Positions 23,426 to 40,819 of a stretch of DNA of 40,819 nucleotides are shown here, piece by piece. Position 1 is the stretch's first letter; the number at the start of each line of letters is the position of its first letter. Both the position numbers and the translations under genes were made by a program. The notes beneath the pieces are model-generated. The model was not told the DNA's origin. It saw nothing but the letters and a program-made list of their open reading frames with translations, and did not search any database. Source of the DNA: Rubrivivax sp. (lineage in GTDB: Bacteria; Pseudomonadota; Gammaproteobacteria; Burkholderiales; Burkholderiaceae_C); the NCBI GenBank assembly GCA_026125665.1, contig JAHCKS010000041.1, positions 1-40,819 on the forward strand, written 5' to 3'.

Positions 23426-23502
23426 GACTGCGTGTCTCCTGGTGAAGGGCCCTGGCGGCGCGCCGGGGCAGAGGGGATCGGATCCGGGTTGTCGGAGCGG
23501 CC

Positions 23503-24792
23503 TCAGCGCGCGTAGCCGAACCACGCGGGCACCGCGGTGGACAGGGGGGCGAAGAGGACGACGGCGAGCAGCACGACGAGTTCGGCGGCGAGCAGCGGCA
23601 CGATGGCGCGCGCCAGCTTCTCCAGCCGCAGCCGCGCCACCGAGGTCATCACGAACAGCACGCCGCCCACCGGCGGCGTGATGAGCCCGACGGTGAGATT
23701 CAGCACGACGGCCATCGCGAAGTGCAGCGGGTGGATGCCGAACTGCTCCGACAGTGGCGCCAGCACCGGCACGAGGATGATGACGGCCGGCAGCGTATCG
23801 ATGAAGAGGCCGCAGGCAAGCACGAAGACCATGACGATCAGCATGACGAGCACCGGCTCGGTGGTCATGCCACCGATCGTCGCGGCGATGGTCTGCGGCA
23901 CCTGCGCCAATGTCAGGAGCCAGGCGAACAGGCTCGCCATCGAGACGATGAGCAGCGCGGCGCTGGTGACGAGACCGCTTTGCAGCAGCACGCGGGTGAT
24001 GACGCGCGCGTTCAGCGTGCGCGTGACGAACAGGCCGATGACGAGGGCGTAGAACACCGCCACGGCGGAGGCCTCGGTGGGCGTGAAGAGGCCGGTGAGG
24101 ATGCCGGCGATGATGATGGCCGGCATCAGCAGCACGGGGAGTGCCTTCCACAGCGCACGTGCGCGCTCGCTCCAGGGCAGCGCGGCGTGCGCGGCGCCGT
24201 AGCCGCGCCGCACGCTGACCCAGTGGTTCATCGCCATCAGCGCCAGCCCCAGCAGCAGGCCGGGCACGACCCCGGCGAGGAAGAGCCCGGCCACGGTGAC
24301 GCGGCTGTCGGTGAGCGCGTAGATCACCATGATGATCGACGGCGGGATGATCGGCCCGATGGTCGCCGTGGCCGCCGAAAGCGCCGCGCTGTAGTAGGTG
24401 TCGTAGCCGCTCTTCTGCATCATGCGCATCTCGACCGCGCCGGGGCCGGCCGCATCGGCGAGCGCCGAGCCGCTGACGCCCGCGAACATCATCGACGTGA
24501 CGACGTTGACGTGCCCCATGCCGCCGCGGATGTGGCCGACGAGCGAGTTCGAGAAGCGCAGCAGCGCGGTGGTGATGCCGCTGGCCGTCATCAGGTCGGC
24601 GGCGAGGATGAAGAACGGCACCGCCATCAGCGGGAAGGAGTTGATGCCGTCGAAGAAGCGCTGCGGCACCGACAGCAGCGACAGCTTGCCTTCCACCGCC
24701 AGCGCCACCAGGCCCGCGGCGCCCATCGCGAAGGCGATCGGCAGGCCGACGAGCAGGCCGAGCCCGAAGACGGCGAAGAGCGCCGTCGTCAT
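23503..24792 (-). CDS. dctM: TRAP transporter large permease DctM
   Basis: A 429-residue membrane protein with about twelve or thirteen helices, the main transport subunit that uses a Na+ gradient. Family landmarks are NSFPLMAVPFFILAADLM, GHVNVVTSMMFAGVSGSALAD, TATIGPIIPPSIIMVIYA and, near the C-terminus, VVLNLTVGLITPPVGGVLFV. The ATG at 24792 overlaps the dctQ stop by four bases (ATGA), so both are made together. A 77-bp gap leads to dctP. Confidence 0.95.
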   Translation of the reverse strand: MTTALFAVFGLGLLVGLPIAFAMGAAGLVALAVEGKLSLLSVPQRFFDGINSFPLMAVPFFILAADLMTASGITTALLRFSNSLVGHIRGGMGHVNVVTSMMFAGVSGSALADAAGPGAVEMRMMQKSGYDTYYSAALSAATATIGPIIPPSIIMVIYALTDSRVTVAGLFLAGVVPGLLLGLALMAMNHWVSVRRGYGAAHAALPWSERARALWKALPVLLMPAIIIAGILTGLFTPTEASAVAVFYALVIGLFVTRTLNARVITRVLLQSGLVTSAALLIVSMASLFAWLLTLAQVPQTIAATIGGMTTEPVLVMLIVMVFVLACGLFIDTLPAVIILVPVLAPLSEQFGIHPLHFAMAVVLNLTVGLITPPVGGVLFVMTSVARLRLEKLARAIVPLLAAELVVLLAVVLFAPLSTAVPAWFGYAR

Positions 24793-25442
24793 GCGGCGGC
24801 TCCAGGCAACGCGTCGGCCTCTTGTTCGGCGCGGCCGGCCGGGTCCTCGATGGCCTCGAACTCGCGCTGCACGAAGCGGCGCCAGAACAGCACCAGGTGC
24901 AGCAGGAACGCCGCGGCGCCCACCGGCACGGCGAGGTAGGGCACGCCGGTGGGGATGTTCATCACCGGGGTCTCCTGGCCCCAGGTGAAGGCGACGATCT
25001 GGAAGCCGAGCACGGCGAGCACGGCGAGGAACACCGCCATCGCCACCGCGAGCAGGGTGCGCAGATGGCGGCGCCACGGCGCCGGCAGCAGGTCCTGCAG
25101 CGAGTCGACGGCGACATGCCGCGACTCGCGCAGCGCCAGCCCGGCACCGAGGTAGGCGACCCAGATCATCTGGTACTGCGTCAACTCCTCGACCCAGATG
25201 ATCGAGTGGTTGAACAGGTAGCGCGTGACGACGTTGAGGAACACGAGCGCGGCCATCGACGCCATCAGCGCGACGACGAGCCACTGGTTCGCGCGCACCA
25301 GGGCGGCTTCGAGGGCGGCCGCGCGGCCGCTCACACGGGCCGAGCGCGTGGCGGCGGAGGGTGTGGCGGCGGGGGGACTCACGGGCGTGGTGTGGAAGGC
25401 GCCCCACGCCCGGCCTTTCACCGTTGCGCGGATCGGCGGCAT
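24789..25442 (-). CDS. dctQ: TRAP transporter small permease DctQ
   Basis: The small membrane subunit of the TRAP transporter, with four predicted helices: the first at WLVVALMASMAALVFLNVV followed by the typical TRYLFNHSIIWVEELTQY, then GAGLALRESRHVAVDSL before helix 3. The start is uncertain. The ATG at 25442 (217 residues) lies directly behind the palindrome at 25446-25461; GTG codons at 25421 or 25382 would give 210 or 197 residues, closer to the family norm. None has a good ribosome-binding site. First gene of the ten-gene minus-strand operon, divergent from the GntR gene. Confidence 0.85.
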   Translation of the reverse strand: MPPIRATVKGRAWGAFHTTPVSPPAATPSAATRSARVSGRAAALEAALVRANQWLVVALMASMAALVFLNVVTRYLFNHSIIWVEELTQYQMIWVAYLGAGLALRESRHVAVDSLQDLLPAPWRRHLRTLLAVAMAVFLAVLAVLGFQIVAFTWGQETPVMNIPTGVPYLAVPVGAAAFLLHLVLFWRRFVQREFEAIEDPAGRAEQEADALPGAAA

Positions 25443-25445
25443 CGT

Positions 25446-25461
25446 ATCTGATATCTCAGAT
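25446..25461. promoter_or_regulatory. Palindromic operator candidate for the GntR regulator
   Basis: ATCTGA-TATC-TCAGAT: two perfect 6-bp arms around a 4-bp centre, in the short AT-rich stretch between dctQ and the divergent GntR/FCD gene. FCD-type regulators bind such short palindromes and commonly control both divergent units. It touches the possible ATG of dctQ and lies just upstream of the -35 of the regulator's own possible promoter, a position suited to repression in both directions. Confidence 0.6.
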
Positions 25462-25489
25462 CTGCCATTCATGGAAACCCCGATACACT
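25462..25489 (+). promoter_or_regulatory. Possible promoter of the GntR gene
   Basis: CTGCCA (25462-25467, four of six), a 16-bp spacer and TACACT (25484-25489). It would give a leader of about 25 bases to the ATG at 25522 and would exclude the upstream in-frame ATG at 25471 as start. Confidence 0.35.
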
Positions 25490-25521
25490 GCGCAGCGGCC
25501 GGCAACCTGGCCCCTATCGGC

Positions 25522-26172
25522 ATGAACCACCCGCTGCGCCTCGAGCGCCCGCAACTGCTCACCGAGCTGGCGTACCTGCGCATCCGCGAGGCCATCGTCA
25601 ACGGTGAGCTGAAGCTCGGCGAGCAGGTGAGCGAGGCGCAGCTCGCTGCCGGCATGGCGGTGAGCAAGACGCCGGTGCGCGAGGCGCTGCTGCGGCTGAA
25701 GGTGGAAGGGCTGGTGGAGATCAGCCCGCAGCGCGGCACCTTCGTCTTCGTGCTCGGGCCCGAGCAGGTCTCGGACCTGTGCCGCTACCGCGCGATGGTG
25801 GAGGCGGAGGCCCTGCGCGAGGCCGCCGAGGCGCAGCCGAAGGCGCTGGTGGACGCGATGGCCAGGCGGGTGGCCGAGATGCGCAAGGCCGAGCGGGCGA
25901 AAGACATGCGTGCACTGGCGCGCATCGACATGGAGTTCCACTGGCAGTTCTTCGTGCACTCGCCGAACGAGTACCTGCGCGCCGGATACGAGGTGATCCG
26001 CGGTCGGCTGGTGGCCCTCAGGCACCGCTCGCCGATCACCAACGCCGTCAGCTCGCACCAGGTGCTGGTGGACGCCGTGGGCGGCGGCGACATCGACGCG
26101 GCTTGCGCGCTGCTGCGCGAGCACGTGTTCGAGAACGAGCCGCGCTACCGCGCGGCCTGCGGCAAGGCTTGA
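25522..26172 (+). CDS. GntR-family transcriptional regulator, FCD (FadR) subfamily
   Basis: A 216-residue cytosolic regulator. The N-terminal winged helix covers residues 10-75, with LAYLRIREAIVNGELKLGE and the recognition region MAVSKTPVREALLRLKVEGL. The C-terminal FCD domain carries the metal and ligand residues: DMEFHWQFF (Asp-x3-His), SSHQVLVDAV and REHVFENE, giving the usual Asp and three His. These regulators sense organic acids, here probably the TRAP substrate or an operon intermediate, and release DNA. An in-frame ATG at 25471 would add 17 residues. Divergent from the dctQMP operon, whose operator candidate lies in the shared gap. Confidence 0.92.
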   Translation: MNHPLRLERPQLLTELAYLRIREAIVNGELKLGEQVSEAQLAAGMAVSKTPVREALLRLKVEGLVEISPQRGTFVFVLGPEQVSDLCRYRAMVEAEALREAAEAQPKALVDAMARRVAEMRKAERAKDMRALARIDMEFHWQFFVHSPNEYLRAGYEVIRGRLVALRHRSPITNAVSSHQVLVDAVGGGDIDAACALLREHVFENEPRYRAACGKA

Positions 26173-29491: not shown

Positions 29492-30631
29492 ATGCCGGTG
29501 CGCCGCATCTTCCTGGCCTCCTCCGAAGAGCTGCGCGAGGACCGCGAGGCCTTTCGCCTGCTCGTCGGACAGCTGAACGAGCAGTGGGAGCCGCGCGGCT
29601 GGACCTTCCGGGTGCGCGTCTGGGAGCACTTCCTCGACGCGATGTCGCCGCATGGCCTGCAGCACGAATACAACCAGGCGGTGCGCGACTGCGACATCTT
29701 CGTGATGCTGTTCTTCACGAAGGTGGGCCGGTTCACGCGCGAGGAGTTCGAGACCGCGGTGGCCGACGTCGCCGCAGGCACCGGGCCGCGCATCTACACG
29801 TACTTCCGCAACGACTACGTGCTGACCGGCGAGCTCGACGACAACGTGCGCTCGCTGCTCGACTTCAAGGCGCGGCTGAAGGAGCTCAAGCACTACGTCA
29901 CGCTGTACCGGAACAAGGAGGACCTGCAGTTCCAGTTCAGCCGCCAGATCGAGCTGCTGTACGGCAGCGAAGGCGCCGGCATCGGCGCCATCGACGCCTC
30001 GATGCCGCAGTTCAAGGTCGGCGAGACGGCGCTGCTGCTCGGCTACCGGCAGCTGTTCGGCGAAAGCGCGCTCGACGCGGCCGGCCTCAAGCGGTTGCAC
30101 GACGCGATCGCGCATGCCACGCGCGAGGTCCGCCAGGCGATGTTCGGCATGGCCTCGCAGCTGCGCCGCGACACGTGGTTCGCCGACAAGCGCCGCATGG
30201 AGCGCACGATCCCGGTGTTCGAGGCCCTGGCTGCCGACGAGGCGCGCTGGCATGCGCCGCACGGCCAGCTCGGCTATGCGCTCGTCGACCAGTCGGCGCC
30301 GGACTGGCAGCGTGCGCTGCAGGCCCTGGACCGCGCGGTCGAGCTGCGCGGCGACGCCGTGCGCGAGGGCCTGTACTACCACTACAACCGCGCGCGCTGC
30401 GCGGTGCGGCTCGACCCGGCCTTCGCGCCGCCCCGTCGGCCGGCGGATGCGGGCACGCGCGAGGCGGTGCTGGAGATCGTGCGGCAGGCGCGGCGGGACC
30501 TCGGCTCGCCGGCCTGGGAGGAGATGCTGCAGCAGCCCGATTCGGCCGACCTGCGCGCCTGGCTGCAGGTGAACGGCTCGACGCCGCGTCCGGCGCGGCC
30601 GCGTCGTGGCGCGGGCGGAGAGGCAGCTTGA
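29492..30631 (+). CDS. DUF4062 (TIR-like) protein with helical C-terminus
   Basis: A 379-residue soluble protein. The N-terminal 110 residues match the DUF4062 pattern: RRIFLASSEELREDREAF at 4-21 and DCDIFVMLFFTKVGRF with the acidic TREEFETA at 67-89. From memory, DUF4062 is placed with TIR/deoxyribosyltransferase-like folds in NLR-like immunity and signalling proteins. The rest has no NTPase motif; residues 195-315 are helical and TPR-like (DWQRALQALDRAVELRGDA, YYHYNRARCAVRLDP). GGGAGG at 29481-29486 selects the ATG at 29492 rather than the one at 29488. Its stop overlaps the start of the RibD-like gene, so the two are coupled. No function is known; a sensor or effector role is only a guess. 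Confidence 0.78.
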   Translation: MPVRRIFLASSEELREDREAFRLLVGQLNEQWEPRGWTFRVRVWEHFLDAMSPHGLQHEYNQAVRDCDIFVMLFFTKVGRFTREEFETAVADVAAGTGPRIYTYFRNDYVLTGELDDNVRSLLDFKARLKELKHYVTLYRNKEDLQFQFSRQIELLYGSEGAGIGAIDASMPQFKVGETALLLGYRQLFGESALDAAGLKRLHDAIAHATREVRQAMFGMASQLRRDTWFADKRRMERTIPVFEALAADEARWHAPHGQLGYALVDQSAPDWQRALQALDRAVELRGDAVREGLYYHYNRARCAVRLDPAFAPPRRPADAGTREAVLEIVRQARRDLGSPAWEEMLQQPDSADLRAWLQVNGSTPRPARPRRGAGGEAA

Positions 30632-31605
30632 ATGCCCTCGCCACGGATGGCGAATGGGCCGGGCACGGGCCCACCTGGGCCGGTGTGTGGGCCGCCGCGC
30701 TGCACGGCGTGCAGGAGCGCCGCGCCGGGCGGCGCGTGCCGCAGTGGGTGCTGCCGCAACCGCTGGACGAAGCCACGGCCCGGCTCGTCACGCTCTACGA
30801 GCCGCTCGTGCGGCGCCCGGCGCAGGCGCCGCCCTACGTGCTGGCACATCTCGGGCAGAGCCTGGACGGCTTCATCGCCACGCGCAGTGGCGACTCTCGC
30901 TTCGTCACCGGCGAGAGCAACCTCGATCACATGCACCGCCTGCGCGCCCTCTGCGACGCCGTGGTCGTCGGTGCCGGCACGGTCGCGGCCGACGACCCGC
31001 GGCTGACGACGCGCCGCGTGCCCGGGCCGCACGCCACGCGCGTGGTGCTCGACCCGATGCAGCGCGTGCCGCTCACGGCGCGTGTGCTGCAGGACACCGA
31101 GGCGCCGACGCTGTGGCTCACCGACGAGCGCTGGCACGACCCGGCCCGCGCCGCACGCGTGGCGGCGCGCACGCTGCCGCTGGCCGGGCTGTGCGGCGGC
31201 GACGGCCGCCTCGACGCGGCGGTGGCGTTGCGCGCGCTCGTCGCGCAGGGCCTGCGCGTCGTCTTCGTCGAGGGCGGCGGCGTCACCGTCTCGCGTTTCC
31301 TCGAGCAGGGCCTGCTCGACCGGCTGCACCTGGCGCTGGCGCCGGTGCTCATCGGCGAGGGCCGCCGCGGGCTGAGCCTGCCGCCGGGCGGCACGATGGC
31401 CGACTGCCCGCGCTTCAGCGGCCGCGTCGTTCGCCTGGGCGACGACATGCTCTGGGACTTCGACCTGCGGGCCACGCGCGCCACCGCGCAGCGTGGCGAC
31501 TCAGCGGCCTCACCGGTCGCTTGGCCGCCAGGCGAGCAGCTCGACGTGGCCGACACGCACGCAGCAGGGCCCGGCGGCGGCGCTGCGGCGCGCCCGCCAC
31601 GCTGA
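30628..31605 (+). CDS. RibD C-terminal-type (dihydrofolate reductase-fold) reductase
   Basis: A protein of up to 325 residues whose region 68-280 matches the reductase half of RibD, which reduces a ribosylamino-pyrimidine in riboflavin synthesis. Landmarks are HLGQSLDGFIA (74-84), VVVGAGTVAADDPRLT (112-127), and VEGGGVTVSRFLEQGLLD (214-231). The first 65 residues are not the deaminase domain: there is no HAE or PCxxC. So it is a stand-alone reductase acting on a pterin- or pyrimidine-like substrate. The TTG at 30628 overlaps the DUF4062 stop (TTGA) and has GGAG/AGG upstream. The last about 45 residues look non-conserved and overlap the convergent methyltransferase gene by 96 bp, so the true end may be near 31470. 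Confidence 0.82.
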   Translation: MNALATDGEWAGHGPTWAGVWAAALHGVQERRAGRRVPQWVLPQPLDEATARLVTLYEPLVRRPAQAPPYVLAHLGQSLDGFIATRSGDSRFVTGESNLDHMHRLRALCDAVVVGAGTVAADDPRLTTRRVPGPHATRVVLDPMQRVPLTARVLQDTEAPTLWLTDERWHDPARAARVAARTLPLAGLCGGDGRLDAAVALRALVAQGLRVVFVEGGGVTVSRFLEQGLLDRLHLALAPVLIGEGRRGLSLPPGGTMADCPRFSGRVVRLGDDMLWDFDLRATRATAQRGDSAASPVAWPPGEQLDVADTHAAGPGGGAAARPPR

Positions 31606-32400
31606 GGCGCCCGCGGTCCGCGGATCGCTGCTCGCCGGCTGCGCTCGGTCAGTGCCGGCCACGCCGGCGACGAAGGCCGCCTCCAGCGGCCCGCCGGCAG
31701 CAGCCAGTCGCTGTGGGCCGCGGCCACCTCGTAGCCGGCGCGCGCGAGCGCCCGCCGCGCGACGGCAGGCGCGCGTGCGCCGAGGGCCGGCCCGCCGAAC
31801 CCCTTGTCGCGTCGCTGGTGCCGGGCGAACGCTGCGGCCACTTCGTCGTCGCCGTCGAGTGCGGGTTGCCACTCGAGCCTGCCGTCGACGACGAGCGACA
31901 GCGAGAGCACCGCCGCGCCGCGGCGCGCCTGTCCGATCAGCGCGTCGAGCCAGCGCTCCGACACGAGGTCGAGCAATGCCGAGGCGCTGACGATCTCGGC
32001 GGCGGCCAACGGCAGATCGGCCAGGCCCTGCCGCAGGTCGAGTCGGCAGCACTGGATGGCGGCCGCGAAACCGTCGCCGGCCAGTCGCAGCGGCGCGCTC
32101 GCGCGCGCCGCGACACGATGGCCTTGCCGCCGCGCCCACCGCTCCAGCGCCGCCGGCACGGCCCGCAACAGCGCGGCGTCGTGATCGACCAGCAGCCACT
32201 GCTGCTCGCCGCCCAGTCGCGGCGCCAGCCAGCGCAGCGCGGCACCGGTGCCGCAGCCAGATCGATACCGCGTAGCGGTGCCGCGGTCGCCGCGCCGGCC
32301 GCGCAAAGGCGGCGGCCAGGCCGGCGGGCCAGGGCGGCAGCGGTCTCTGTCGCGCGCCGCGCGGTCGGCGCCTTCGCGCAGGCGCGTTTCAGTCGGCGCC
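31510..32400 (-). pseudogene. Class I SAM-dependent methyltransferase, frame-broken
   Basis: A methyltransferase read in pieces. Core in one frame: SGCGTGAALRWLAPRLGG, LLVDHDAALL, and ASALLDLVSERWLDALI through to AHSDWLLPAG. Before it, PLRGIDL lies in another frame: inserting one G in GATCTGGCTGCGG (about 32241) restores the classical GIDLGCGTG. After it, near 31690, one extra G in GGCGGGCC would join LLPAG to GPLEAAFVAGVAGTD and the C-terminal RVGHVELLAW, ending at 31510. Further shifts are needed around 32330-32395 (REGADRAARD region). The breaks could be real decay or missing bases in G runs of the assembly. If intact, it would methylate the product of this cluster. It is last in the minus-strand operon. 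Confidence 0.65.
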
Positions 32401-32459
32401 GCCGCGCCGCCGCGCGGGCAGCTGGCGCTGGCAGCCCTGCCGCCCGTTGCGCTGCCAGC

Positions 32460-33569
32460 GGCCCGCGCCGACGAGGCAAGCAACAGCTGCTCCCAGCGCG
32501 TGCAGGTGTCGCGCCAGGTCGGCAGGCGCGCCCGCGCGCGCCGGACCGCTGCCGCCATCTCGGCGCGCCGTTCGCGACTGGCAAGGAGGCCTGCCAGCAC
32601 GGCGCGCAGCCGCCCGGCGTCGCCCGGCGGCACGACGACGCCGGCGCCACCGGCCAGCAACGCCGAAGCATGGCCGGCGTCGGTGGCCACCACCGGCAGG
32701 CCGTGTGCCAGCGCCTCGGCGACGACCATGCCGTAACCCTCGAAGTGAGAGGCGAGCACGAACAGGTCCGCGGCGGCGTAGTGCGCCTCGAGCGCCGCAC
32801 CGTCGGCCGTGCCGTGCCAGAAGACGCGCGCGCCGAGGCCGGCCCGCTCCACCGCATCGAACGCCTCGCGCCGGGTGCCGGCGTCGCGGTCGAGGCTGCC
32901 GACGCAGTGCAGCTCCCACGGCAGCTCGCCCAGGCCGGCCAGCGCCCGCAGCAGGACGAGGTGGCCCTTGCGCGCCGTCAGCGAGGCCACGCACAGCAGG
33001 CGCGGCGGCCCTGCGGCCCAGTGCGCGTGCCGGCGCGCCGCGGCCCGCGGCCGCATGCAGCCCGGCTCGATGACGAGCACGCGCTCACGGGGCAGCTGCA
33101 GCTCCTGCGGCAGCAGGCGCGCCGTGGCCTCGCTCGTCACGACGACGCGGTGGGCCGCGGCGCAGGCGCGGCGTTCGCTGGTGCGCAACGCTGCCGCTTC
33201 CTTGCGCGACAGGCCCGTCTCCAGGGCCAGCGGGTGGTGCACGAGGGCGAGCCAGCACAACCTTCGCGCGTGCCGTTCGGCCAGCTCGGGCAGGTGGCCG
33301 AAGGCGAGCCCGTCGGCGATGACGGCCGTGCCGTCGGCCAGCGGCGCGACGGCGGCCTCGGCCTGGCGCCAGGCGTCCGCCTGTTGCGCTGCACTGCCCG
33401 GGGCGAACGGGCCGTCGAGCTGCAGCACCTGCACGTGCCAGCCGCGCGCGCGCAGGCCCCGGGCGACGTGGCGGTCATAGCGAAAGCCGCCGGTGGGGGT
33501 GTCGAGGTCGCCGGGCAGCAGCAGCGCGCAATGGCGCCCGGGACGCGGTGCCGTCGCCGCGGCGTTCAT
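32460..33569 (-). CDS. Glycosyltransferase family 4 (GT-B fold)
   Basis: A sugar-nucleotide-dependent glycosyltransferase of about 365 residues. The N-terminus has the acceptor-side loop LLLPGDLDTPTGGFRYDRH; the C-terminal half has LLCVASLTARKGHLVLLRAL, the donor-binding loop LFVLASHFEGYGMVVAEALA and PVVATDAGHASALL, with the catalytic E of the EX7E type in HFEGYGMVVAE. The ATG at 33569 is preferred over the GTG at 33584 on family grounds. No stop follows in this frame for over a kilobase, although homology ends near 32470, so the real C-terminus is unclear and the frame runs into the damaged methyltransferase gene. No signal or membrane segment: it probably glycosylates a small molecule in the cytosol. 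Confidence 0.85.
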
Positions 33570-33608
33570 CCCTTCACCGGTCACGGTTGTGCACGCGACC
33601 GCTCGTCA

Positions 33609-34010
33609 TCAGCCGAGCGTGCCTTCGAACGAGGCCCACGCCACGTGCGATTCGTGCATCGTCGCCTTCATGCGCAGCAACCCGCCGGCGTGCGGCCCGA
33701 GCTCGCCGGCGGCGATGCGCGCGGCCATGCGATCGAAGACCACGCGTGCGAGGAACTCGGTGGTCGTGTTGCGCCCGGCGAACTCGGGCAGCTCGTCGAG
33801 ATTGCGGAAGGCGAGCGGCTCGAGCACGGCCTTCAGCGCCTGCGCGGCGCGGCCGATGTCGACGACGACGCCATCGCCGTCGAGCTCGGCGCGAGTGAAC
33901 TCGACGTCGACGACATAGGTCGCGCCGTGCAGCCGCTGCGCCGGGCCGAAGACGGCGCCGCGGAAGCTGTGGGCGATCATCACGTGGTCGCGCACGGTGA
34001 CGCTGTACAT
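33609..34010 (-). CDS. QueD/PTPS-family pterin synthase homologue with altered active site
   Basis: A 133-residue T-fold protein of the 6-pyruvoyl/6-carboxy-tetrahydropterin synthase family. The fold markers are AHSFRG with His14, AQRLHGATY with His28, and RNTTTEFLA (cf. NPTSE). Compared with QueD's CGRLHGH, the catalytic Cys is Ala24 and the third zinc ligand His is Ala30; the catalytic Asp-His of the LDHHYLN segment is also replaced (LAFRNLD). The pterin-binding Glu is kept (Glu120 in HESHVAW, cf. ETPTAW). So it can probably bind a pterin-like ring but not carry out the classical reaction. AGGAGGA at 34021-34027 is a strong ribosome-binding site. Second gene of the minus-strand operon after the MDR dehydrogenase. 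Confidence 0.86.
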
Positions 34011-34040
34011 GTGCTCTCGGTCCTCCTGCGTCTTGGCGCC

Positions 34041-35072
34041 TCAGGCGAAGGCGGCGCCCGGGTAGTCGATGCGCTGGCACAACGTGGCCGGGGGACCCCG
34101 CGTCTCGTCTGCCAGGCGCGCCAGCACCGCCGGCAGCTCGGCGAACGGCGCCACGTCGGTGACGAGCGCGTCGAGCACCGGGTCGGCCAGCAGCTCGAGC
34201 GCCAGCGCCATGCGCCGGCGCGTGTCGAAGCGTGCACGCTGCGCCGTGGCCACGTGCCCGACCTGCGTGCTCTTCAGCGTCAGGCGCCGGGCGTGGAAGG
34301 CCTCGCCCAGCGGCACGGCCACCGGCCGCGTGCCGTGCCAGCTGGCTTCGAGCACCGTGGCCTCGAAGGCGGCCAGGCGCAGCGCCGTGGCCAGGCCCTC
34401 GGCGCTGCCGCTGGCGTGCACGACGAGGTCGGCCTCGGGCGCGGCGCCGCCCGGCTCGGCGAAGCTCGCGCCGAGCGCCTCGGCCACGGCGCGGCGCGCC
34501 GGCTGGTGGTCCACCACCTGCACGCGCACGCCCGGCAGGCGTGCCGCGAGCCACGCCACGAGCAGCCCGACCACGCCGCCGCCGACGACGGCGATGCGCT
34601 CGCCGATGCGCGGGCCGGCGTCCCACAACACGTTCACCGCCGTCTCCATGTTCGCCGCCAGCACGGCGCGCGCCGGCGGTACGCCGGGTGGCAACACGTG
34701 CACGGCGGCGGCGGGCACGACGTAGCGGTCCTGGTGCGGGTGCAGGCAGAACACGGTGCGGCCCAGCACGTCCGCCGGCCCCGCCTCGACCACCCCCACG
34801 CTCGCGTAGCCGTACTTCACCGGCGCCGGGAAGTCGCCGGCCTGGAAGGGCGCCCGCATTCGCGCGTGTTCGCCCGGGGGCACCTCGCCGCGGAACACCA
34901 GCGCCTCGGTGCCGCGGCTCACGCCGCTGTGCAGCGCGCGCACCCGCACGTCCAGCGGACCCGGCGGCGGCAGCGGCTCGCGACGGATCTCGGCGCGGCC
35001 CGGCGCGGCGAGCCAGCAGGCCAAGGCGTCGTCTGACACGTGGTCGGCGGCATGGTCGGCGGCGTCGTGCAT
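34041..35072 (-). CDS. MDR-family dehydrogenase without zinc ligands
   Basis: A 343-residue medium-chain dehydrogenase related to the BchC-like branch. The NAD(P)-binding loop is [12 protein letters not shown] (162-173). The normal zinc Cys site (C-GTD/H) reads SRGTE (52-56), and the normal GHE zinc His site reads [10 protein letters not shown] (86-95), so neither ligand is present. [10 protein letters not shown] (111-120) is preserved, as in relatives annotated as zinc-binding alcohol dehydrogenase. It should oxidise or reduce an alcohol or a carbon-carbon bond by a zinc-free mechanism. First gene of the operon with the pterin-synthase homologue, glycosyltransferase and methyltransferase; its ATG is only 31 bp from the divergent CDP-alcohol transferase gene. 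The Asp/His-rich first 14 residues look like a tail. Confidence 0.85.
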
Positions 35073-35103
35073 GGCGTGAGCCCTTGCCGCAGAATGATCG
35101 CAC

Positions 35104-35877
35104 GTGGAACCCGGCCTCCCTGCGCCAGTGCGGCGCGACCTCGCGCTGGCTTGGCTGCTGCAGCTTGCCGCGGCCGGGGCCGTCGCCGCGGCCGCGGGCT
35201 GGGGCCTGCCGTATGTCGCGGGGGCGGCGGGTGCGATGGCCGCCGCGCTGTGGGTCGTCGCACGCGCGTTCGCGCGCGCCGCGCCGCATGCGCATTTCGG
35301 CGCCGCCAACCGCGTCACGCTGCTTCGCCTGGCGCTCGGCATGCTGCTCGCGGCGGTTCTGGCCGTCGTCGCGGCGCCGGTGGCCGAGGCACGCGCCACG
35401 CTGCCGGCGGCGCTGGCCTGGGCCCTCGTCGGCGTGGCCACGGTGGCGGCCTTGCTCGACGCCGTCGACGGCCCGCTCGCCCGTCGCGCGCACATGGCCA
35501 GCGCCTTCGGGGCGCGCTTCGACATGGAGACCGACGCTTGGCTGACGCTGGTGCTGAGCGCGCTGGCCTGGCAGCTCGACCGCGCCGGGCCGTGGGTGCT
35601 GCTGTCGGGCCTGATGCGCTACGCCTTCGTCGCCGCGGCCTGGGAGTGGCCGTGGCTCGCGGCGCCGCTCGCGCCCAGCCGGCGGAGGCAGGCGGTGTGC
35701 GTGCTGCAGATCACCGTGCTCGTCGCCGCGCTGGCGCCGGTGTGGCCGCGCCCGGTGTCGTCGGCGCTGTGCGCGTTCGGGCTCGTGCTGCTCGCCGCCT
35801 CGTTCGGCAAGGACCTGCGGCAGCTCGCGCGCCGGCGCGCAGCGTCGGCGCCCGCGGCAGGGGCGCCGGGCGGCGGT
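35104..35877 (+). CDS. CDP-alcohol phosphatidyltransferase family membrane protein, 3' end unresolved
   Basis: A membrane enzyme of about 250 residues that joins a phosphatidyl or phospho-alcohol group to an alcohol. The signature is complete: Asp119-x2-Asp122-Gly-x2-Ala126-Arg127-x8-Gly136-x3-Asp140-x3-Asp144. Helices precede and follow it, ending near [12 protein letters not shown] (234-245). The GTG start at 35104 has a weak ribosome-binding site. No stop occurs in this frame before 37290, deep inside the next gene; family length predicts an end around 35850-35880, exactly where the next gene starts. Either a base is missing near the end or the two proteins are fused across a shift. The end given here is the junction, not a seen stop. 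Confidence 0.72.
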
Positions 35878-37579
35878 GGCCGAGCCCGGCGCCGGCGCGT
35901 GGCTGCTGCGCTTCGCCGCCGCCGCCTTCGTGCTCAACACCTTGCTCACCTTCGAGAGCCGGCTCGACGCCGCCGGTGTGCACTGGAGCCCGCGCCTGTC
36001 GTTCGAGCTCGTCGCGGCGGTGCTGGCGCTGCTGGCGTGGGCGGCGTGGCGGGGGCCGGCGTGGCGCCTCGGCGCACGTGCCGCCTGGGCGCTGGCAGCG
36101 GTGGGCACGGTGCTCGTCGTCGCGCGCTACGTCGACGTGACGGTGCTCGTGCTGCTCGGGCGGCCGGTGAACCTGGTCTGGGACCTGCCGCACGTGGGGC
36201 CGCTGCTCGCGTTGGCCTGGGCGGCCTGGCCGGCGTGGTGGGTGATCGGCGCGGCGCTGGCCGCGGTGGCGGCCGTGGCCGCCGTGGCACTGGTGCTGCG
36301 CTGGGCGCTCGCGGTGCTCGCCGAGTGCCTGCAGCGGCGGCCGGCGCGGCCTGCGGTCGCCGGCGGCGCGGCGCTGCTGTGCGCGAGCTTCGCCGCGCAC
36401 CCTTTCGTCGCGGCCGACACGCGCTGGTTCTTCTCGCTGCCGGTGACGCCCGTGCTGGCGCAGCAGGCCACCTTTGCAGCGAAGGCGCTTTCGCGCGAGC
36501 GCGTCGAGTCGCGCCTGACGCCGAGCCCCGACTTCGCGGCCAACGTCGGCGCACTGCGCGGCGCCGACGTGCTGCTGCTGTTCGCCGAGTCGTACGGCAT
36601 GAGCTCCTTCGAGCGTCCGGCGCTGGCCGCCGGGCTGGCAGCGCCGCGCGAGCGGCTGCGGGCGGCGATCGAGAGCGGTGGCCGGCAGGTGGTGTCGGCG
36701 CGCTGGCGCTCGCCCACCTTCGGCGGCGGTTCGTGGCTCGCGCACGCGGCGCTGCTGGCCGGCGTGGACACGCACGACCCCGACGACTACGCGCTGCTGC
36801 TGGGCACGCGCCGCCCGACGCTGGTGAGCCACTTCGCGCGCCACGGCTACCGCACCGTGGGCTGGATGCCGGGCATGCACCGGCCGTGGCCCGAAGGCAG
36901 CTTCTACGGCTTCGAGCGTTATGCCGACGTGCACGCGGTCGGCTACGCCGGCCCGGCGTTCGGCTACTGGCGCGTGCCCGACCAGGCGTCGCTGGCGCTT
37001 CTGCATGCGCAGGAACTGGCGCCGCTCCCGCCCGGGGCGGGCGCCGCCGAGGCGCCGCGGCGGCCGCGCTTCGTCGTCTTTCCGCTGCTGGACACGCACG
37101 CGCCGTTCCATCCGCTCGCGCCGTACCAGCCGGACTGGGCACGCCTGCTCACGCCCGAGGCCTGGTCGCGCGAGCAGCTTGCCCAGGCGATGTCGCCAGC
37201 GGAGCAGGTGGAAGGCGAGGCCGGCTACGTGCGCGCGATGTCGCTGACGTTCCGTTGGCTCGGCGAGTACCTCGGCGGCCCGGCCGATGACGGCGCTGCC
37301 GTCACTCAGCCGCGCGCGCCCGGCGCGCTGCTCACGATCATCGTCGGCGACCACCAGCCACATGCCGCCGTCGCGGGCAGCGGCGCGTCGTGGGAGGTGC
37401 CGGTGCACGTCGTCACGCGCGACGCGGCGCTGCTGGGGCGGCTGCGCGAGGCCGGCTTCGTCTCAGGGCTCGAGCCGGGGCCCCGTGCCCTCGGTGGCCT
37501 GCACGAGCTGACCGCGCTGCTCGTGCGCGTGTTCGACGCGCCACGCGTAGATGTCGCCGGACCCGGCGCCAGCCGGTAG
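35876..37579 (+). CDS. Membrane sulfatase/phosphoglycerol transferase-like protein (LtaS/OpgB type)
   Basis: A 567-residue protein with about five N-terminal helices and a large periplasmic alkaline-phosphatase-superfamily domain. Landmarks are ADVLLLFAESYGMSSFERP (metal and nucleophile region), SPTFGGGSWLAHAALLAG, where the Ser aligns with the nucleophile area of LtaS-like enzymes, VVFPLLDTHAPFHPL and the C-terminal metal motif IIVGDHQPH. Relatives move phosphoglycerol or phosphoethanolamine from phospholipids onto glycans or lipid A. Placed directly after a CDP-alcohol transferase, it may use that enzyme's lipid as donor. The GTG at 35876 is the first usable start. Its last 117 bp overlap the convergent FkbM gene. 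Confidence 0.8.
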   Translation: MAEPGAGAWLLRFAAAAFVLNTLLTFESRLDAAGVHWSPRLSFELVAAVLALLAWAAWRGPAWRLGARAAWALAAVGTVLVVARYVDVTVLVLLGRPVNLVWDLPHVGPLLALAWAAWPAWWVIGAALAAVAAVAAVALVLRWALAVLAECLQRRPARPAVAGGAALLCASFAAHPFVAADTRWFFSLPVTPVLAQQATFAAKALSRERVESRLTPSPDFAANVGALRGADVLLLFAESYGMSSFERPALAAGLAAPRERLRAAIESGGRQVVSARWRSPTFGGGSWLAHAALLAGVDTHDPDDYALLLGTRRPTLVSHFARHGYRTVGWMPGMHRPWPEGSFYGFERYADVHAVGYAGPAFGYWRVPDQASLALLHAQELAPLPPGAGAAEAPRRPRFVVFPLLDTHAPFHPLAPYQPDWARLLTPEAWSREQLAQAMSPAEQVEGEAGYVRAMSLTFRWLGEYLGGPADDGAAVTQPRAPGALLTIIVGDHQPHAAVAGSGASWEVPVHVVTRDAALLGRLREAGFVSGLEPGPRALGGLHELTALLVRVFDAPRVDVAGPGASR

Positions 37580-38173
37580 CGTGGCGATCCAGCGGCGCAT
37601 CGCATCGGCAGCCAGCGGCGCCGGCTGCAGCCAGCGAAAGCGCTCGCCGGCGCAGGCGCGGTAGCGGTAGGGGGCCAGCGCCTCCAGCCGCTCGATGCAG
37701 GCGAGCGCCGCGTCGGGCAGCGCGGCGAGGTACTCGAACGACAGGGCCGGCAGCGGGCGCGACAGGCCCTGCAGCACCGCCAGTTCGTGCCCCTCGACGT
37801 CGATCTTCACGAAGTCCGGCATGCCGTGCTCGTCGACGAGGGCGTCGAGCGTCGTCAGCGGCACGCGCAGCCGCGTCTCCCAGCGCACGGTGCGGAACGC
37901 CGGCGTGGCGCCCACGCGCTCGGCCCAGCCCGCCGACAGCGTGGCGACGGTGGGGTGGCGCGCGCTGAGCAGCAGCTCGGCCTGGGCGGCGCGCTCGCCC
38001 ACGGCCTCGGCGCGCAGCACGACGCCGGCATCGCGCGCGAACATCGCGCGCAGCACGCGCAGGCAGTCGGGCTGCGGCTCGAGTGCCACGACGCGCGCGC
38101 CCAGCCGCCGCCACACTCGCACGCGGCTGCCGACATGGGCGCCGATGTCGAACGCCAGCCCGCCCGCCGGCAC
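37463..38173 (-). CDS. FkbM-family methyltransferase
   Basis: A SAM-dependent O-methyltransferase of the FkbM family. GLAFDIGAHVGSRVRVWRRL is the SAM loop, VVALEPQPDCLRVL the acidic strand-2 end, VPLTTLDALVDEHGMPDFV and KIDVEGHELAVLQGL the family signature. The GTG at 38173 is the first usable start, but the codons ahead of it already read like family sequence (LLRSLAIYHGIPGRRARLQ) up to about 38300 with no ATG. An ATG at 38307 overlaps the stop of the upstream regulator (ATGA) but is in another frame, so one indel in between is likely. The C-terminal tail after GDIYAW overlaps the convergent sulfatase-like gene. Probable substrate: a sugar or small-molecule hydroxyl. Confidence 0.8.
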   Translation of the reverse strand: MPAGGLAFDIGAHVGSRVRVWRRLGARVVALEPQPDCLRVLRAMFARDAGVVLRAEAVGERAAQAELLLSARHPTVATLSAGWAERVGATPAFRTVRWETRLRVPLTTLDALVDEHGMPDFVKIDVEGHELAVLQGLSRPLPALSFEYLAALPDAALACIERLEALAPYRYRACAGERFRWLQPAPLAADAMRRWIATLPAGAGSGDIYAWRVEHAHEQRGQLVQATEGTGPRLEP

Positions 38174-38303
38174 CAGCGGCGCGTAGAACGCCTGCAGGCG
38201 CGCGCGCCGCCCGGGGATGCCGTGGTAGATGGCCAGCGAACGCAGCAGGCCGAGCGCGCGGCCGAGCCGCGGCGCCGCGGCCTGCCTGCCGGCCGGCCGC
38301 AGG

Positions 38304-38984
38304 TCATGCCTGATCGAGGGCCTCCGCGGCGTCGGCGGCGAGCACGCGGTAGAGCGCGTCGGTGCGGTTGCGGGCGCCCAGCGCCCGGTAGACCATCGAC
38401 AGGTGCACCTTCACCGTGCCTTCGGCGATGGCCAGCTGGCGTGCGATCAGCTTCGTGGGCAGGCCGCGCACGGCCAGCGCGAGCACCTGGCGCTGGCGCT
38501 GCGAGAGCTCGTTGGCGACGAAGTGCGCGAGCTGCTCGCGGGGTGCCGAGTCCGGCTCGGGTGCCGCGGCGGGCTCGGCGAGCAACAGCTCGGCCGGCAG
38601 GTAGACGCGGTGGCGCAGCACGACACGCAGCGCGGCCTCGATCTCGTCGAGCGCGTAGGTCTTCGGGATGAAGCCCGAGGCGCCCGCCTCGATCACCTCG
38701 CGCACGCGCTGCGGCGTCGTCTCGGCCGACAGCAGGCACACCGAGGCGCCTTCGAAGTGCGCCCGCACGGCGCGCAGCGCCTCGACGCCCGAGGTCCCGG
38801 GCAGGTGGTAGTCGAGCAGCACGAGCTCCACGCCGGTGGCCGGCAGGGCGAGTGCCGCAGCGACATCGCGCACGGCCGCGAAGTCGAGCGCGGTGCCCGG
38901 ATGCAGCTCGGCGGCGATGCGTTCGAGCAGCCGCTGCGTGCCGGCGCGCACGATCTCGTGGTCGTCGATCAAGAGGACTTGCAT
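38304..38984 (-). CDS. NarL/FixJ-type response regulator
   Basis: A 226-residue two-component regulator. The receiver domain has the acidic pair Asp7-Asp8, the phospho-acceptor Asp58 in LLDYHLPG, Ser/Thr in LLSAETT and Lys108 in FIPKTY. A linker of about 35 residues rich in Ala, Pro and Glu leads to the LuxR-type helix-turn-helix: LSQRQRQVLALAVRGLPTK and IAEGTVKVHLSMVYRALG. It should bind DNA on phosphorylation by the kinase encoded 23 bp upstream. Its TGA overlaps an ATG (38307) at the head of the FkbM gene, suggesting co-translation. Confidence 0.94.
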   Translation of the reverse strand: MQVLLIDDHEIVRAGTQRLLERIAAELHPGTALDFAAVRDVAAALALPATGVELVLLDYHLPGTSGVEALRAVRAHFEGASVCLLSAETTPQRVREVIEAGASGFIPKTYALDEIEAALRVVLRHRVYLPAELLLAEPAAAPEPDSAPREQLAHFVANELSQRQRQVLALAVRGLPTKLIARQLAIAEGTVKVHLSMVYRALGARNRTDALYRVLAADAAEALDQA

Positions 38985-39007
38985 GCACGCCCCCGCGCGA
39001 CGGCATG

Positions 39008-40819
39008 CTACTCGATGGACCTCCACGACAGCAGCCAGCCCGCGAGCTCGGCGGCGCGCAGCGGCTTCTGCATCACCGCCACCGCCAGGTGCGCCGGCAC
39101 GTCGATGGTGGCCGGCTCGAGCTCGCCGGTGACGATGGCCGCGGGCCGCTCGCCGTGGCGCGCCTGCACGCGCTCGATGGCCTGCAGCCCGTTCTCCGGC
39201 CCGGCCAGCCGCCAGTCGGCGAGGATGGCGTCGGGCGACCAACCCGCCGCGTCCAGCGCTGCGACGGCCAGCGCGCCGTCGGCGGCAACGACGACGCGGC
39301 AACCCCAGTCCTCGAGCAGCGTGCGCGTGGCGCCGGCGACCGCGGCGTCGTCCTCGATGACCACGACGACCACGTCGCGCAGCGTGTCGAGCAAGTCGCG
39401 TGGCGGCAGCGCCGCGGGGCCGGCCGTTTCCTTCGCCAGCGGCGGGGCGCAGCGCTGGAGCGTGACGGCGAACACGCTGCCGCGGCCCGGCGCGGATGAC
39501 ACGTCGATGCGGTGGCCGAGCAGGTCGGCGAGCCGCCTGACGATGGCGAGCCCGAGGCCCATGCCGGCCCCGCCGGCACGCCACGGCTCATGCCGCTGCG
39601 CCGCCGGCCCGGCCTGGAAGTACTCCTCGAAGATGCGACCGAGGTCGGCTTCGCCGATGCCGACCCCGCTGTCGCGCACCGTCACGCGCACGAAGTCGGG
39701 CGGCGGGCAGTCGTGGCTCCTGCCGCCGCCAGATCCTCGTCCGGTGGCGCTGCCGGCTCCGGCGGCCACGTCCGCTCGCTCGCCAGGGCCGTCGTCCACC
39801 GCGGCGTCCGCGTCGCCGTCGCCGTCGCCGGCCACCTCGAGCGCGACGAAGCCCGCGTCGGTGTACTTGATCGCGTTGTCCAGCAGGTTGCGCAGGATGC
39901 GGTCGAGCATCACCGCGTCGCTGTGCACCCACGCGTTCGAGCTCGCGCAGGTGAAGGCGAGCCCCTTGCCTTCGGCGCGCGGGCGGTAGTCGTTGGCCAG
40001 GCGATCGAGCAGCCGCCCGAGCGGCAACGGCCTGGACTCCGGCACGAGGCTGCCCGCATCGAGCCGCGAGAGGTCGAGCAGCGCACCGAACAGCTCGCGC
40101 AGCGAATCGGCCGAACGGGCCGCCTGCTCCAGCGTGCCGGCGACCTTCGGGTCCTGCGTCGAGCGCCGTGCGTGGTCCAGCAGCAGCAGCAGCGAGTGCA
40201 GCGGCTGCCGCAGGTCGTGGCTGGCGGCGGCGAGGAAGCGCGACTTGGCCCGGTTGGCTTCCTCGGCGCGCTCGCGCGCGCTGCGCGCCTCGGCCTCGCG
40301 CTGGCGCAGCTGGCGCGCCAGGTCCTCGTTCTCGAAGCCCACGCGCAGCGCGCGCGCCACGAGCTCGGCCCCGTCGCGCGCGAACAGGATCAGGTAGGCG
40401 AGGAAGAGGACGATCATGCCAGCCACGGGCACGCGCAGCGGCATCGTCGAGGCGAGCCAGCCGATCGCCAGTGGCACGAGGAAGGCGCCGACGAGGCCGT
40501 AGAACGCCGCCGGCACCGCGGCCGAGACGGCGATGCCGCCGGCGCTCCAGGCGCACAGCACCATCGTCATCAGCGCCCACTCCAGCGGCGGCGCGCCGAA
40601 GAACAGCAGCGCCGACGAGCCCGCGACGGCGCCGCTCAGCGTCGCCGCGGCCACCAGGCGGCGGATCCACCGACGCACGCGCTGCGGCGCTGGCGGCCGT
40701 GCCAGCAGGGCCCGGCACACCAGCGCCCGCACGGTCCACAGGCCGATGGCGGCCGCGGCCCAGCCCCAGGCCAGGCCGGCCCCGACATGCGGCGCCATCG
40801 TCCAGGCGATGAAGCCCGC
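39008..40819 (-). CDS. Hybrid sensor histidine kinase with C-terminal receiver, 5' partial
   Basis: A kinase open to the right edge; seven codons (AGFIAWT) lie before the first ATG at 40798, so the true start is outside. Counting from that ATG: five or six membrane helices in 10-140, a coiled coil at about 155-185, the phospho-His194 in AASHDLRQPLHS, the N box LLRNLLDNAIKYT (302-314), an unusual Gly/Asp-rich insert (324-366), G boxes VRDSGVGIG and GAGMGLGLAIV, and a receiver domain from about 474 with Asp483-Asp484 and the acceptor Asp528 (LADWRL). The signal is unknown; no periplasmic sensor domain is obvious, so sensing may be in the membrane. Forms a pair with the NarL-type regulator 23 bp downstream. 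Confidence 0.93.
   Translation of the reverse strand, partial: AGFIAWTMAPHVGAGLAWGWAAAAIGLWTVRALVCRALLARPPAPQRVRRWIRRLVAAATLSGAVAGSSALLFFGAPPLEWALMTMVLCAWSAGGIAVSAAVPAAFYGLVGAFLVPLAIGWLASTMPLRVPVAGMIVLFLAYLILFARDGAELVARALRVGFENEDLARQLRQREAEARSARERAEEANRAKSRFLAAASHDLRQPLHSLLLLLDHARRSTQDPKVAGTLEQAARSADSLRELFGALLDLSRLDAGSLVPESRPLPLGRLLDRLANDYRPRAEGKGLAFTCASSNAWVHSDAVMLDRILRNLLDNAIKYTDAGFVALEVAGDGDGDADAAVDDGPGERADVAAGAGSATGRGSGGGRSHDCPPPDFVRVTVRDSGVGIGEADLGRIFEEYFQAGPAAQRHEPWRAGGAGMGLGLAIVRRLADLLGHRIDVSSAPGRGSVFAVTLQRCAPPLAKETAGPAALPPRDLLDTLRDVVVVVIEDDAAVAGATRTLLEDWGCRVVVAADGALAVAALDAAGWSPDAILADWRLAGPENGLQAIERVQARHGERPAAIVTGELEPATIDVPAHLAVAVMQKPLRAAELAGWLLSWRSIE

What the first reader, a model, noticed from the sequence alone, without database searches (positions are those of the whole stretch)
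30628..38307. Uncharacterised pterin/pyrimidine-type biosynthetic cluster with lipid and glycan enzymes
Seen: a stand-alone RibD-type reductase, a methyltransferase, a GT4 glycosyltransferase, a PTPS/QueD homologue, an MDR dehydrogenase, a CDP-alcohol phosphatidyltransferase, an LtaS/OpgB-like membrane enzyme and an FkbM methyltransferase lie together in tightly packed, overlapping units. Known: RibD reductases and PTPS enzymes work on ring systems derived from GTP. Inference: the cluster makes a methylated, glycosylated pteridine- or pyrimidine-like compound, perhaps joined to or exported with a lipid carrier. I know of no described pathway with this combination, though I recall similar gene neighbourhoods of unknown function in other proteobacteria.
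Basis: partly seen in the sequence, partly recalled or inferred. Interest (0 to 1): 0.8.

Follow-up and report, generated by a model that had tools for sequence, protein, structure and literature searches.

The report
Widespread uncharacterised PTPS-IV biosynthetic gene cluster
This stretch carries a set of genes, kept together in the same order in many distantly related bacteria, that probably builds an unknown small molecule from a GTP-derived ring, decorates it with methyl groups and sugar and may tie it to the cell membrane; I found no report of what the product is.

Summary
The group is not chance. In 86 loci (window included; L010 and L024 are one contig) MDR lies directly upstream of PTPS in 81, GT4 directly downstream in 83, then the methyltransferase in 77, in Pseudomonadota, Actinomycetota and Acidobacteriota. 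In 300 genomes of the order, PTPS and the strongest MDR matches fall in the same 9, side by side. The PTPS-like protein is not QueD: it carries the FGPAQ signature of subfamily PTPS-IV (PMC5445326), lacks HGH, and matches uncharacterised SCO6650 (PDB 3D7J). That PTPS-IV neighbours GTP cyclohydrolase II and RibD_C is in print; the wider gene set I did not find in ten searches of a partial library. My reading: a GTP-derived ribityl-aminopyrimidine is reshaped, methylated, glycosylated and joined to a membrane lipid. The cluster is solid, the first steps likely, the lipid link plausible, the product unknown. F420 is unlikely: 11 of 17 cluster genomes, the window's included, have neither CofE nor a CofH over cut-off.

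The parts
30628..31605 (+). Stand-alone RibD_C-type reductase without deaminase domain. Start uncertain: similarity to the G012 copy reaches back to 30496.
   Evidence: Pfam RibD_C E 1.6e-41; PDB 6p8c E 2.8e-30, 2azn E 5.8e-27; start; a second RibD_C match and GCH II lie together on contig C90
31510..32400 (-). Class I SAM methyltransferase whose reading frame is broken in this contig: core and C-terminal part lie in different frames; by my reading there is a further frame switch near motif I
   Evidence: tblastn with the intact L010/L024 copy: residues 10-247 at 32384-31689 frame -3, residues 204-301 at 31848-31519 frame -2; fold of the L024 copy
32440..33584 (-). GT4 glycosyltransferase
   Evidence: Pfam Glyco_trans_1_4 E 3.3e-25; 60% identity to the L010 GT4; one ORF with the methyltransferase in 10 loci
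33609..34010 (-). PTPS-IV (T-fold) protein with FGPAQ signature, not QueD
   Evidence: 3D7J/SCO6650 E 2.3e-59 by family profile; FGPAQ present; HGH in 0 of 85, HGA in 85 of 85 relatives
34041..35072 (-). MDR (medium-chain dehydrogenase superfamily) oxidoreductase, weakly BchC-like
   Evidence: PDB profile 4cpd E 1.3e-12; NCBIfam bchC E 4.6e-13, 49 bits against a cut-off of 291; adjacent to PTPS-IV in 9 of 9 genomes of the order
35104..35890 (+). CDP-alcohol phosphatidyltransferase; its frame stays open to 37290
   Evidence: Pfam CDP-OH_P_transf E 3.4e-10; ORF; motif D-x2-D-G-x2-A-R-x8-G-x3-D-x3-D at 35458
35876..37579 (+). LtaS/OpgB/EptA-like enzyme: an N-terminal bundle of about six helices (membrane placement inferred) and an alkaline-phosphatase-type domain
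   Evidence: AlphaFold model pLDDT 88.9; Foldseek LtaP 4uop E 1.1e-6, GacH 6dgm E 8.9e-6, PbgA 6xlp E 4e-5, EptC 6a82 E 3.4e-4; E238, D492, H493 invariant in 19 rows; fused to CDP-AP in L010
37463..38269 (-). FkbM-family methyltransferase; start unclear
   Evidence: Pfam Methyltransf_21 E 8.8e-15; 71% identity to the L010/L024 copy; in 27 of 86 loci

Best explanation
The stretch is one member of a conserved biosynthetic gene cluster built round a PTPS-IV protein (core MDR - PTPS-IV - GT4 - methyltransferase, with RibD_C-type reductase and CDP-alcohol phosphatidyltransferase). Proposed mechanism. (1) GTP is opened to 2,5-diamino-6-ribosylamino-pyrimidinone 5'-phosphate by a GTP cyclohydrolase II: a cluster-linked one in 34 of 86 loci, presumably the housekeeping enzyme in the window's genome. 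(2) The stand-alone RibD_C enzyme reduces the ribosyl to a ribityl chain, probably without prior deamination, as in archaeal and fungal riboflavin synthesis. (3) PTPS-IV, which has lost catalytic residues and a zinc-site histidine of QueD but keeps the glutamate that anchors pterin, binds the ring and shapes or closes it, and MDR oxidises or reduces a carbon of it or of the side chain. (4) Methyltransferase and GT4, in some loci one ORF, methylate and glycosylate it. (5) The CDP-alcohol phosphatidyltransferase joins the polyol to a phosphatidyl group, and the LtaS-like enzyme (fused to it in one genome) and FkbM modify the head, the former on the outer side of the membrane; in relatives a flippase-like protein and YceI would help export. 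Shown: gene set, co-conservation, folds, motifs, fused ORFs. Inferred from families: steps 1, 2, 4. Conjecture: the chemistry of step 3 and the lipid link of step 5.
For: Order kept: MDR directly upstream 81/86, GT4 directly downstream 83/86, GT4 then methyltransferase 77/86, CDP-AP divergent directly beside MDR 52/86. Among 57 loci with at least 8 kb on both sides, duplicate and window left out: GT4 57, methyltransferase 57, MDR 56, RibD_C 52, CDP-AP 49. Genome-wide test independent of how the loci were picked: 9 of 300 have PTPS-IV, and the 9 MDR matches under E 1e-100 are in the same genomes, adjacent. Long-form GCH II and creatininase-family gene go together: both 20, GCH II alone 1, creatininase alone 7, neither 58. 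RibD_C best PDB match is 6p8c, named 2,5-diamino-6-ribosylamino-4(3H)-pyrimidinone 5'-phosphate reductase; HAE deaminase motif in 0 of 57; another RibD_C and GCH II lie together on C90, so this one is a paralogue. Glu110 of QueD kept 85/85. CDP-AP motif 55/55. GT4-methyltransferase one ORF in 10 loci, CDP-AP-LtaS one ORF in L010. LtaS-like fold.
Against: No product, ligand or mutant is known to me. The window lacks a linked GCH II and creatininase-family gene, and the genome's one creatininase is at best 38% identical to the linked kind, so supply rests on the housekeeping enzyme (assembly 88.6% complete). The substrate form of RibD_C is open: the second PDB match, 2azn, is deposited as a uracil-type reductase, and the NCBIfam bacterial RibD C-terminal model outscores the archaeal one, 138 against 105 bits, both under cut-off. 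No NCBIfam equivalog cut-off is reached by any cluster protein scanned. The lipid arm is not universal: CDP-AP 67/86, LtaS 28/86. The LtaS-like fold match has low TM-scores and sulfatases also appear. The creatininase-family enzyme has no clear job where the GCH II keeps Tyr. A strong MDR homologue (G199, E 3.7e-60) stands without PTPS-IV. The methyltransferase frame is broken in this contig.
Confidence: 0.48

Rival explanations
1. A soluble, glycosylated and methylated pterin or pyrimidine (like the pterin glycosides of cyanobacteria and green sulphur bacteria, recalled), with the CDP-AP, LtaS-like and FkbM genes belonging to a separate envelope function that merely sits beside it.
For: The core MDR-PTPS-GT4-MT is far more constant than LtaS (28/86) and FkbM (27/86); in L014 RibD_C and the core lie on one strand in a row and no CDP-AP was found in the locus.
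Against: CDP-AP is in 67/86 loci and directly beside MDR in 52/86, which is much for a bystander; flippase-like (23/86) and YceI (17/86) genes also recur.
Confidence: 0.25
2. FAPy route: the linked GCH II stops at the formylated pyrimidine, the creatininase-family protein deformylates it as archaeal ArfB does, and RibD_C acts as ArfC: an archaeal-type start in bacteria.
For: Both Streptomyces GCH IIs (L070, L088) carry Met where E. coli has Tyr105, the change that I recall as the switch in SCO6655; the L070 creatininase shows weak ArfB likeness, E 1.9e-8, far under cut-off.
Against: 33 of 35 GCH II ORFs in these loci keep Tyr (34 in the two linked families, of which 32 Tyr, plus one more in L065); the two other creatininases scanned, L015 and L053, show no ArfB match; the window has neither gene.
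Confidence: 0.1
3. The PTPS-IV cluster serves synthesis of cofactor F420, as PMC5041015 says of PTPS-IV from unpublished work.
For: The precursor would be related (recalled); of 17 cluster genomes CofE is in 5 and CofH over cut-off in 5.
Against: 11 of 17 have neither, among them the window genome, G012 (99% complete), G044, G026, G054 and the genomes of the Variovorax, Vreelandella, Tistlia and Thiorhodococcus loci; some of these show only weak, sub-cut-off CofH-like matches.
Confidence: 0.03
4. A canonical queuosine, folate or biopterin gene (QueD, PTPS-III, PTPS-II) next to unrelated envelope genes.
For: Sub-cut-off hits to QueD and PTPS models.
Against: Motifs CxxxHGH, CxxxxxHGH and ExxHGH are each in 0 of 85 relatives, HGA in 85; catalytic His71 in 0 of 85; the recurrent neighbours are the cluster families, not Que or Fol genes.
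Confidence: 0.03

Closest known systems
PTPS-IV subfamily of COG0720 (FGPAQ signature; PMC5445326 cluster-node 62, 561 sequences; named also in PMC5041015)
   Same: FGPAQ signature; neighbourhood with PF00925 and PF01872 (RibD_C), as that paper's passages report (the paper labels PF00925 FolE2, Pfam calls it GTP cyclohydrolase II)
   Different: The passages seen do not mention the MDR, GT4, methyltransferase, CDP-AP, LtaS-like, FkbM, creatininase, flippase-like and YceI partners, nor a product; the supplement could not be opened
SCO6650 of Streptomyces coelicolor, PDB 3D7J, and SCO6655 (papers recalled, not seen)
   Same: PTPS-like protein matches at E 2.3e-59; Streptomyces loci L070 and L088 have the same core plus a Met-type GCH II
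   Different: The window lacks linked GCH II and creatininase-family genes and has LtaS-like and FkbM genes; the S. coelicolor neighbourhood itself was not examined
Archaeal and fungal start of riboflavin synthesis (ArfB, ArfC/Rib7; pathway recalled)
   Same: Stand-alone reductase, best PDB match 6p8c
   Different: Joined to glycosyl-, methyl- and phosphatidyltransferase genes; the genome has a separate RibD_C and GCH II
LtaS / GacH / PbgA / EptC / BcsG membrane phospho-alcohol transferases
   Same: Overall fold class and metal-site type residues
   Different: 10-14% identity and low TM-scores; donor and acceptor unknown; one ORF with a CDP-AP in G012

Membership tests
PTPS-IV (COG0720) | FGPAQ signature | tested here: met
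   Present in the window protein and in 83 of 85 relatives; definition from passages of PMC5445326
PTPS-IV (COG0720) | Neighbourhood with RibD_C and GTP cyclohydrolase II | tested here: inconclusive
   RibD_C present in the window; GCH II not linked in the window, linked in 34 of 86 loci
QueD / PTPS-I, PTPS-II, PTPS-III | CxxxHGH, CxxxxxHGH or ExxHGH motif | tested here: not met
   0 of 85 each; HGA in 85 of 85; motif definitions from PMC5041015 section 7
QueD / PTPS-I | Catalytic Cys, His and the zinc histidines | tested here: not met
   Cys27 position not Cys, His33 Ala in 85 of 85, His71 in 0 of 85; His31 kept; His16 not judged because the aligner left a gap (typed residues 28-97 agree with the chain printed)
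ArfC / 2,5-diamino-6-ribosylaminopyrimidinone reductase | Stand-alone RibD_C, nearest to ArfC-type enzymes | tested here: inconclusive
   Best PDB match 6p8c by name, second 2azn named a uracil-type reductase; bacterial RibD C-terminal model scores higher than archaeal
ArfC / 2,5-diamino-6-ribosylaminopyrimidinone reductase | Equivalog cut-off (TIGR01508) | tested here: not met
   105 bits against 186
CDP-alcohol phosphatidyltransferase | D-x2-D-G-x2-A-R-x8-G-x3-D-x3-D motif (recalled) | tested here: met
   Window at 35458 and 55 of 55 relatives
LtaS-type transferase superfamily | Membrane helices plus alkaline-phosphatase-type domain with conserved E and DH ligands | tested here: met
   Helical N-terminus and fold class from the model, invariant E238, D492, H493; membrane placement inferred
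LtaS-type transferase superfamily | Transfer of a phospho-alcohol from a phospholipid | not testable with these tools
   needs an assay
F420 pathway | Co-occurrence with CofH and CofE | tested here: not met
   Window genome none; CofE 5 of 17, CofH over cut-off 5 of 17, neither in 11 of 17

The most novel reading that the evidence does not exclude
The cluster makes a new class of membrane lipid whose head group is a methylated, glycosylated pteridine or ribityl-aminopyrimidine: the phosphatidyltransferase adds the GTP-derived polyol to a phosphatidyl group, the lipid is turned to the outer face and finished by the LtaS-like and FkbM enzymes. It would be a ring-bearing, possibly redox-active or light-absorbing lipid shared by Gram-negative and Gram-positive bacteria.
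Probability: 0.25. Interest if true: 0.88.

Novelty: new member of a known kind. Interest (0 to 1): 0.56.

Why it matters
A gene set kept in order across several phyla points to a product with a real job, yet neither the product nor the reaction of PTPS-IV turned up in anything I could search. The fuller gene list, with fused ORFs and a testable first step, turns an orphan crystal structure (SCO6650) and an orphan COG0720 subfamily into a pathway that can be tested by isotope labelling and gene deletion. The window copy suggests that the core can exist without its own GTP cyclohydrolase II.

Tried and rejected
F420 lead tested and set aside for this lineage. QueD, folate and biopterin readings set aside on motifs. 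A general FAPy/ArfB start, my own first idea (note), set aside after the Tyr/Met count. The genome's own creatininase as a distant partner set aside: at best 38% identity to the linked kind. The methyltransferase fold search gives generic class I enzymes, ToxA of toxoflavin among many at rank 39: not used. The profile of the LtaS-like family found nothing in the PDB by sequence. Papers: PMC5041015, passages and section 7; PMC5445326, passages; PMC13118837, one passage, unrelated; PMC2853524 and all others, search listing only; the SCO6650/SCO6655 papers and Phillips 2012 not seen, recalled. Ten paper searches in an open-licence library found no description of the whole cluster; one search covered an author name and returned unrelated papers; most subscription papers are outside the library.

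Weak points. L010 and L024 are the same contig, so 86 loci are 85 distinct places. My simple gene caller missed the window's own minus-strand genes and gave long antisense frames instead, so the window is absent from the 85-row PTPS counts, and starred entries come from tblastn. The MDR query was read in the wrong frame; it supplies the starred MDR entries in five loci (window, L010, L018, L024, L067). MDR itself is supported there by the ORF comparison (hit in 84 of the 85 other loci) and, for the window. Rows dropped before counts: the tree uses 77 of 86 (duplicate L024 and loci without a called MDR of 250-420 residues left out); one search uses 57 loci.

Full report
What is there. The window is contig C204 of an unnamed 6.28 Mb assembly, 268 contigs, 88.6% complete, 73% G+C in the window. 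Between 30.6 and 38.3 kb lie, left to right: a stand-alone RibD_C-type reductase (+), a class I methyltransferase (-), a GT4 glycosyltransferase (-), a PTPS-like T-fold protein (-), an MDR dehydrogenase (-), a CDP-alcohol phosphatidyltransferase (+), an LtaS-like enzyme (+) and an FkbM methyltransferase (-). MDR to methyltransferase is one likely operon, CDP-AP and LtaS diverge from it, RibD_C and FkbM converge on the ends.

Is it more than chance. A scan of named genomes with the PTPS profile confirmed 577 relatives and kept 80; with five loci from genomes of the same order and the window this gives 86 loci, of which L010 and L024 are one contig. Counts within 9 kb: PTPS 86, GT4 84, MDR 84, methyltransferase 79, CDP-AP 67, RibD_C 66, LtaS 28, FkbM 27, creatininase family 27, flippase-like 23, GCH II 21 long and 13 short, YceI 17, a GT2 11. 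Beyond the first 14 gene families the next reaches 9 loci. Order and strand are mostly as in the window. Since these loci were chosen through PTPS, the reverse was tested on 300 genomes of the order: PTPS-IV in 9; the MDR profile in 13, of which the 9 with E below 1e-100 are the same genomes at adjoining positions; the other 4, one of them at E 3.7e-60, have no PTPS-IV match. In the window's own genus 5 of 59 relatives have any match to the window's PTPS, 4 of them strong, so the cluster is accessory. A tree of MDR plus PTPS (77 of 86 loci) puts the window with a Rubrivivax MAG (100/97) in a supported group of 19 Burkholderiales rows; the three same-genus copies in the tree group with a Rhizobacter MAG instead (94/93), which may mean transfer or loss. 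The 13 Actinomycetota rows form one side of a branch.

Which subfamily. The family profile matches the solved but uncharacterised SCO6650 (3D7J) at E 2.3e-59, QueD and PTPS structures only at 1e-4 to 1e-3. In 85 of 85 relatives HGH is HGA and the catalytic Cys and His of QueD are missing, while Glu110 and His31 are kept. The window protein carries FGPAQ, as do 83 of 85 relatives; PMC5445326 gives this as the PTPS-IV signature, with PF00925 and RibD_C as neighbours (passages). PMC5041015 (section 7) links PTPS-IV to F420 from unpublished work; of 17 cluster-bearing genomes tested, CofE is in 5 and CofH over cut-off in 5, and 11 have neither, among them the window genome and its four same-genus cluster carriers. 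So F420 is unlikely to be its general role.

How it may work. The best PDB match of RibD_C is 6p8c, a 2,5-diamino-6-ribosylamino-pyrimidinone phosphate reductase; the next, 2azn, is deposited as a putative uracil-type reductase (that it is the archaeal MJ0671, later assigned to the undeaminated substrate, is recalled). NCBIfam's bacterial RibD C-terminal model scores above its archaeal one, both under cut-off, so the order of deamination and reduction is open. A second RibD_C and a GCH II lie together on C90, so the cluster reductase is a paralogue. Where a long-form GCH II is linked it goes with a creatininase-family gene (both 20, GCH II alone 1, creatininase alone 7, neither 58). The E. coli Tyr105 position is Tyr in 33 of 35 GCH II ORFs of these loci and Met in 2, both Streptomyces; I recall that Met in SCO6655 yields FAPy, so most linked enzymes should give the deformylated pyrimidine. 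GT4 and methyltransferase are one ORF in 10 loci; CDP-AP and the LtaS-like enzyme are one ORF in G012. The CDP-AP motif is complete in the window and in 55 of 55 relatives. The LtaS-like model, pLDDT 88.9, is nearest to LtaP, LtaS and GacH, with PbgA, EptC and BcsG further down, but at low TM-scores and with sulfatases among the hits. Together these favour a GTP-derived ribityl-pyrimidine or pteridine that is methylated, glycosylated and tied to a membrane lipid. The ring chemistry of PTPS-IV and the lipid bond are conjecture.

State of the window copy. Against an intact relative the methyltransferase reads in more than one frame, and CDP-AP and LtaS lie in different frames while the CDP-AP frame has no stop before 37290. 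This may be assembly error in G+C-rich DNA or real decay. No GCH II or creatininase of the linked kind was found in the window genome, which is 88.6% complete, nor in G012.

Verdict. Real, conserved and interesting; a member of a neighbourhood already glimpsed in print (PTPS-IV with PF00925 and RibD_C) but, as far as ten searches of a partial library show, not worked out. Confidence that it is one functional unit is very high; that it starts from the GTP-derived pyrimidine about 0.65; that the product is lipid-linked about 0.4.

Noticed in passing
window 29492-30631 (+): ORF just before RibD_C whose start resembles DUF4062-type proteins (recalled); no Pfam hit; tblastn found it in 1 of 86 cluster loci, the window itself
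   Followed up: partly
window 38304-40798 (-): LuxR-type response regulator and hybrid histidine kinase beside the cluster; relatives of both also lie near the cluster in G012
   Followed up: partly
window 31510-32400 and 35837-37290: Apparent frame breaks in the methyltransferase and at the CDP-AP/LtaS junction
   Followed up: partly
L010:11509-14007: CDP-alcohol phosphatidyltransferase and LtaS-like enzyme in one open frame of 833 residues
   Followed up: partly
L070:7205-7861 and L088:15140-15739: Streptomyces linked GCH II with Met at the E. coli Tyr105 position, as recalled for SCO6655
   Followed up: yes
window 22418-26169: TRAP transporter set (DctP, DctQ, DctM) and a GntR/FCD regulator; RraA-like protein at 20685-21335
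   Followed up: no
window 13602-14954 and 18371-19633: Two glucose/sorbosone dehydrogenase-like proteins on the minus strand
   Followed up: no
L089:15541-16410, L093:10556-11401, L030:12375-13289: A further gene family (f52) inside three Acidobacteriota clusters, by its start perhaps a second methyltransferase; not scanned
   Followed up: no
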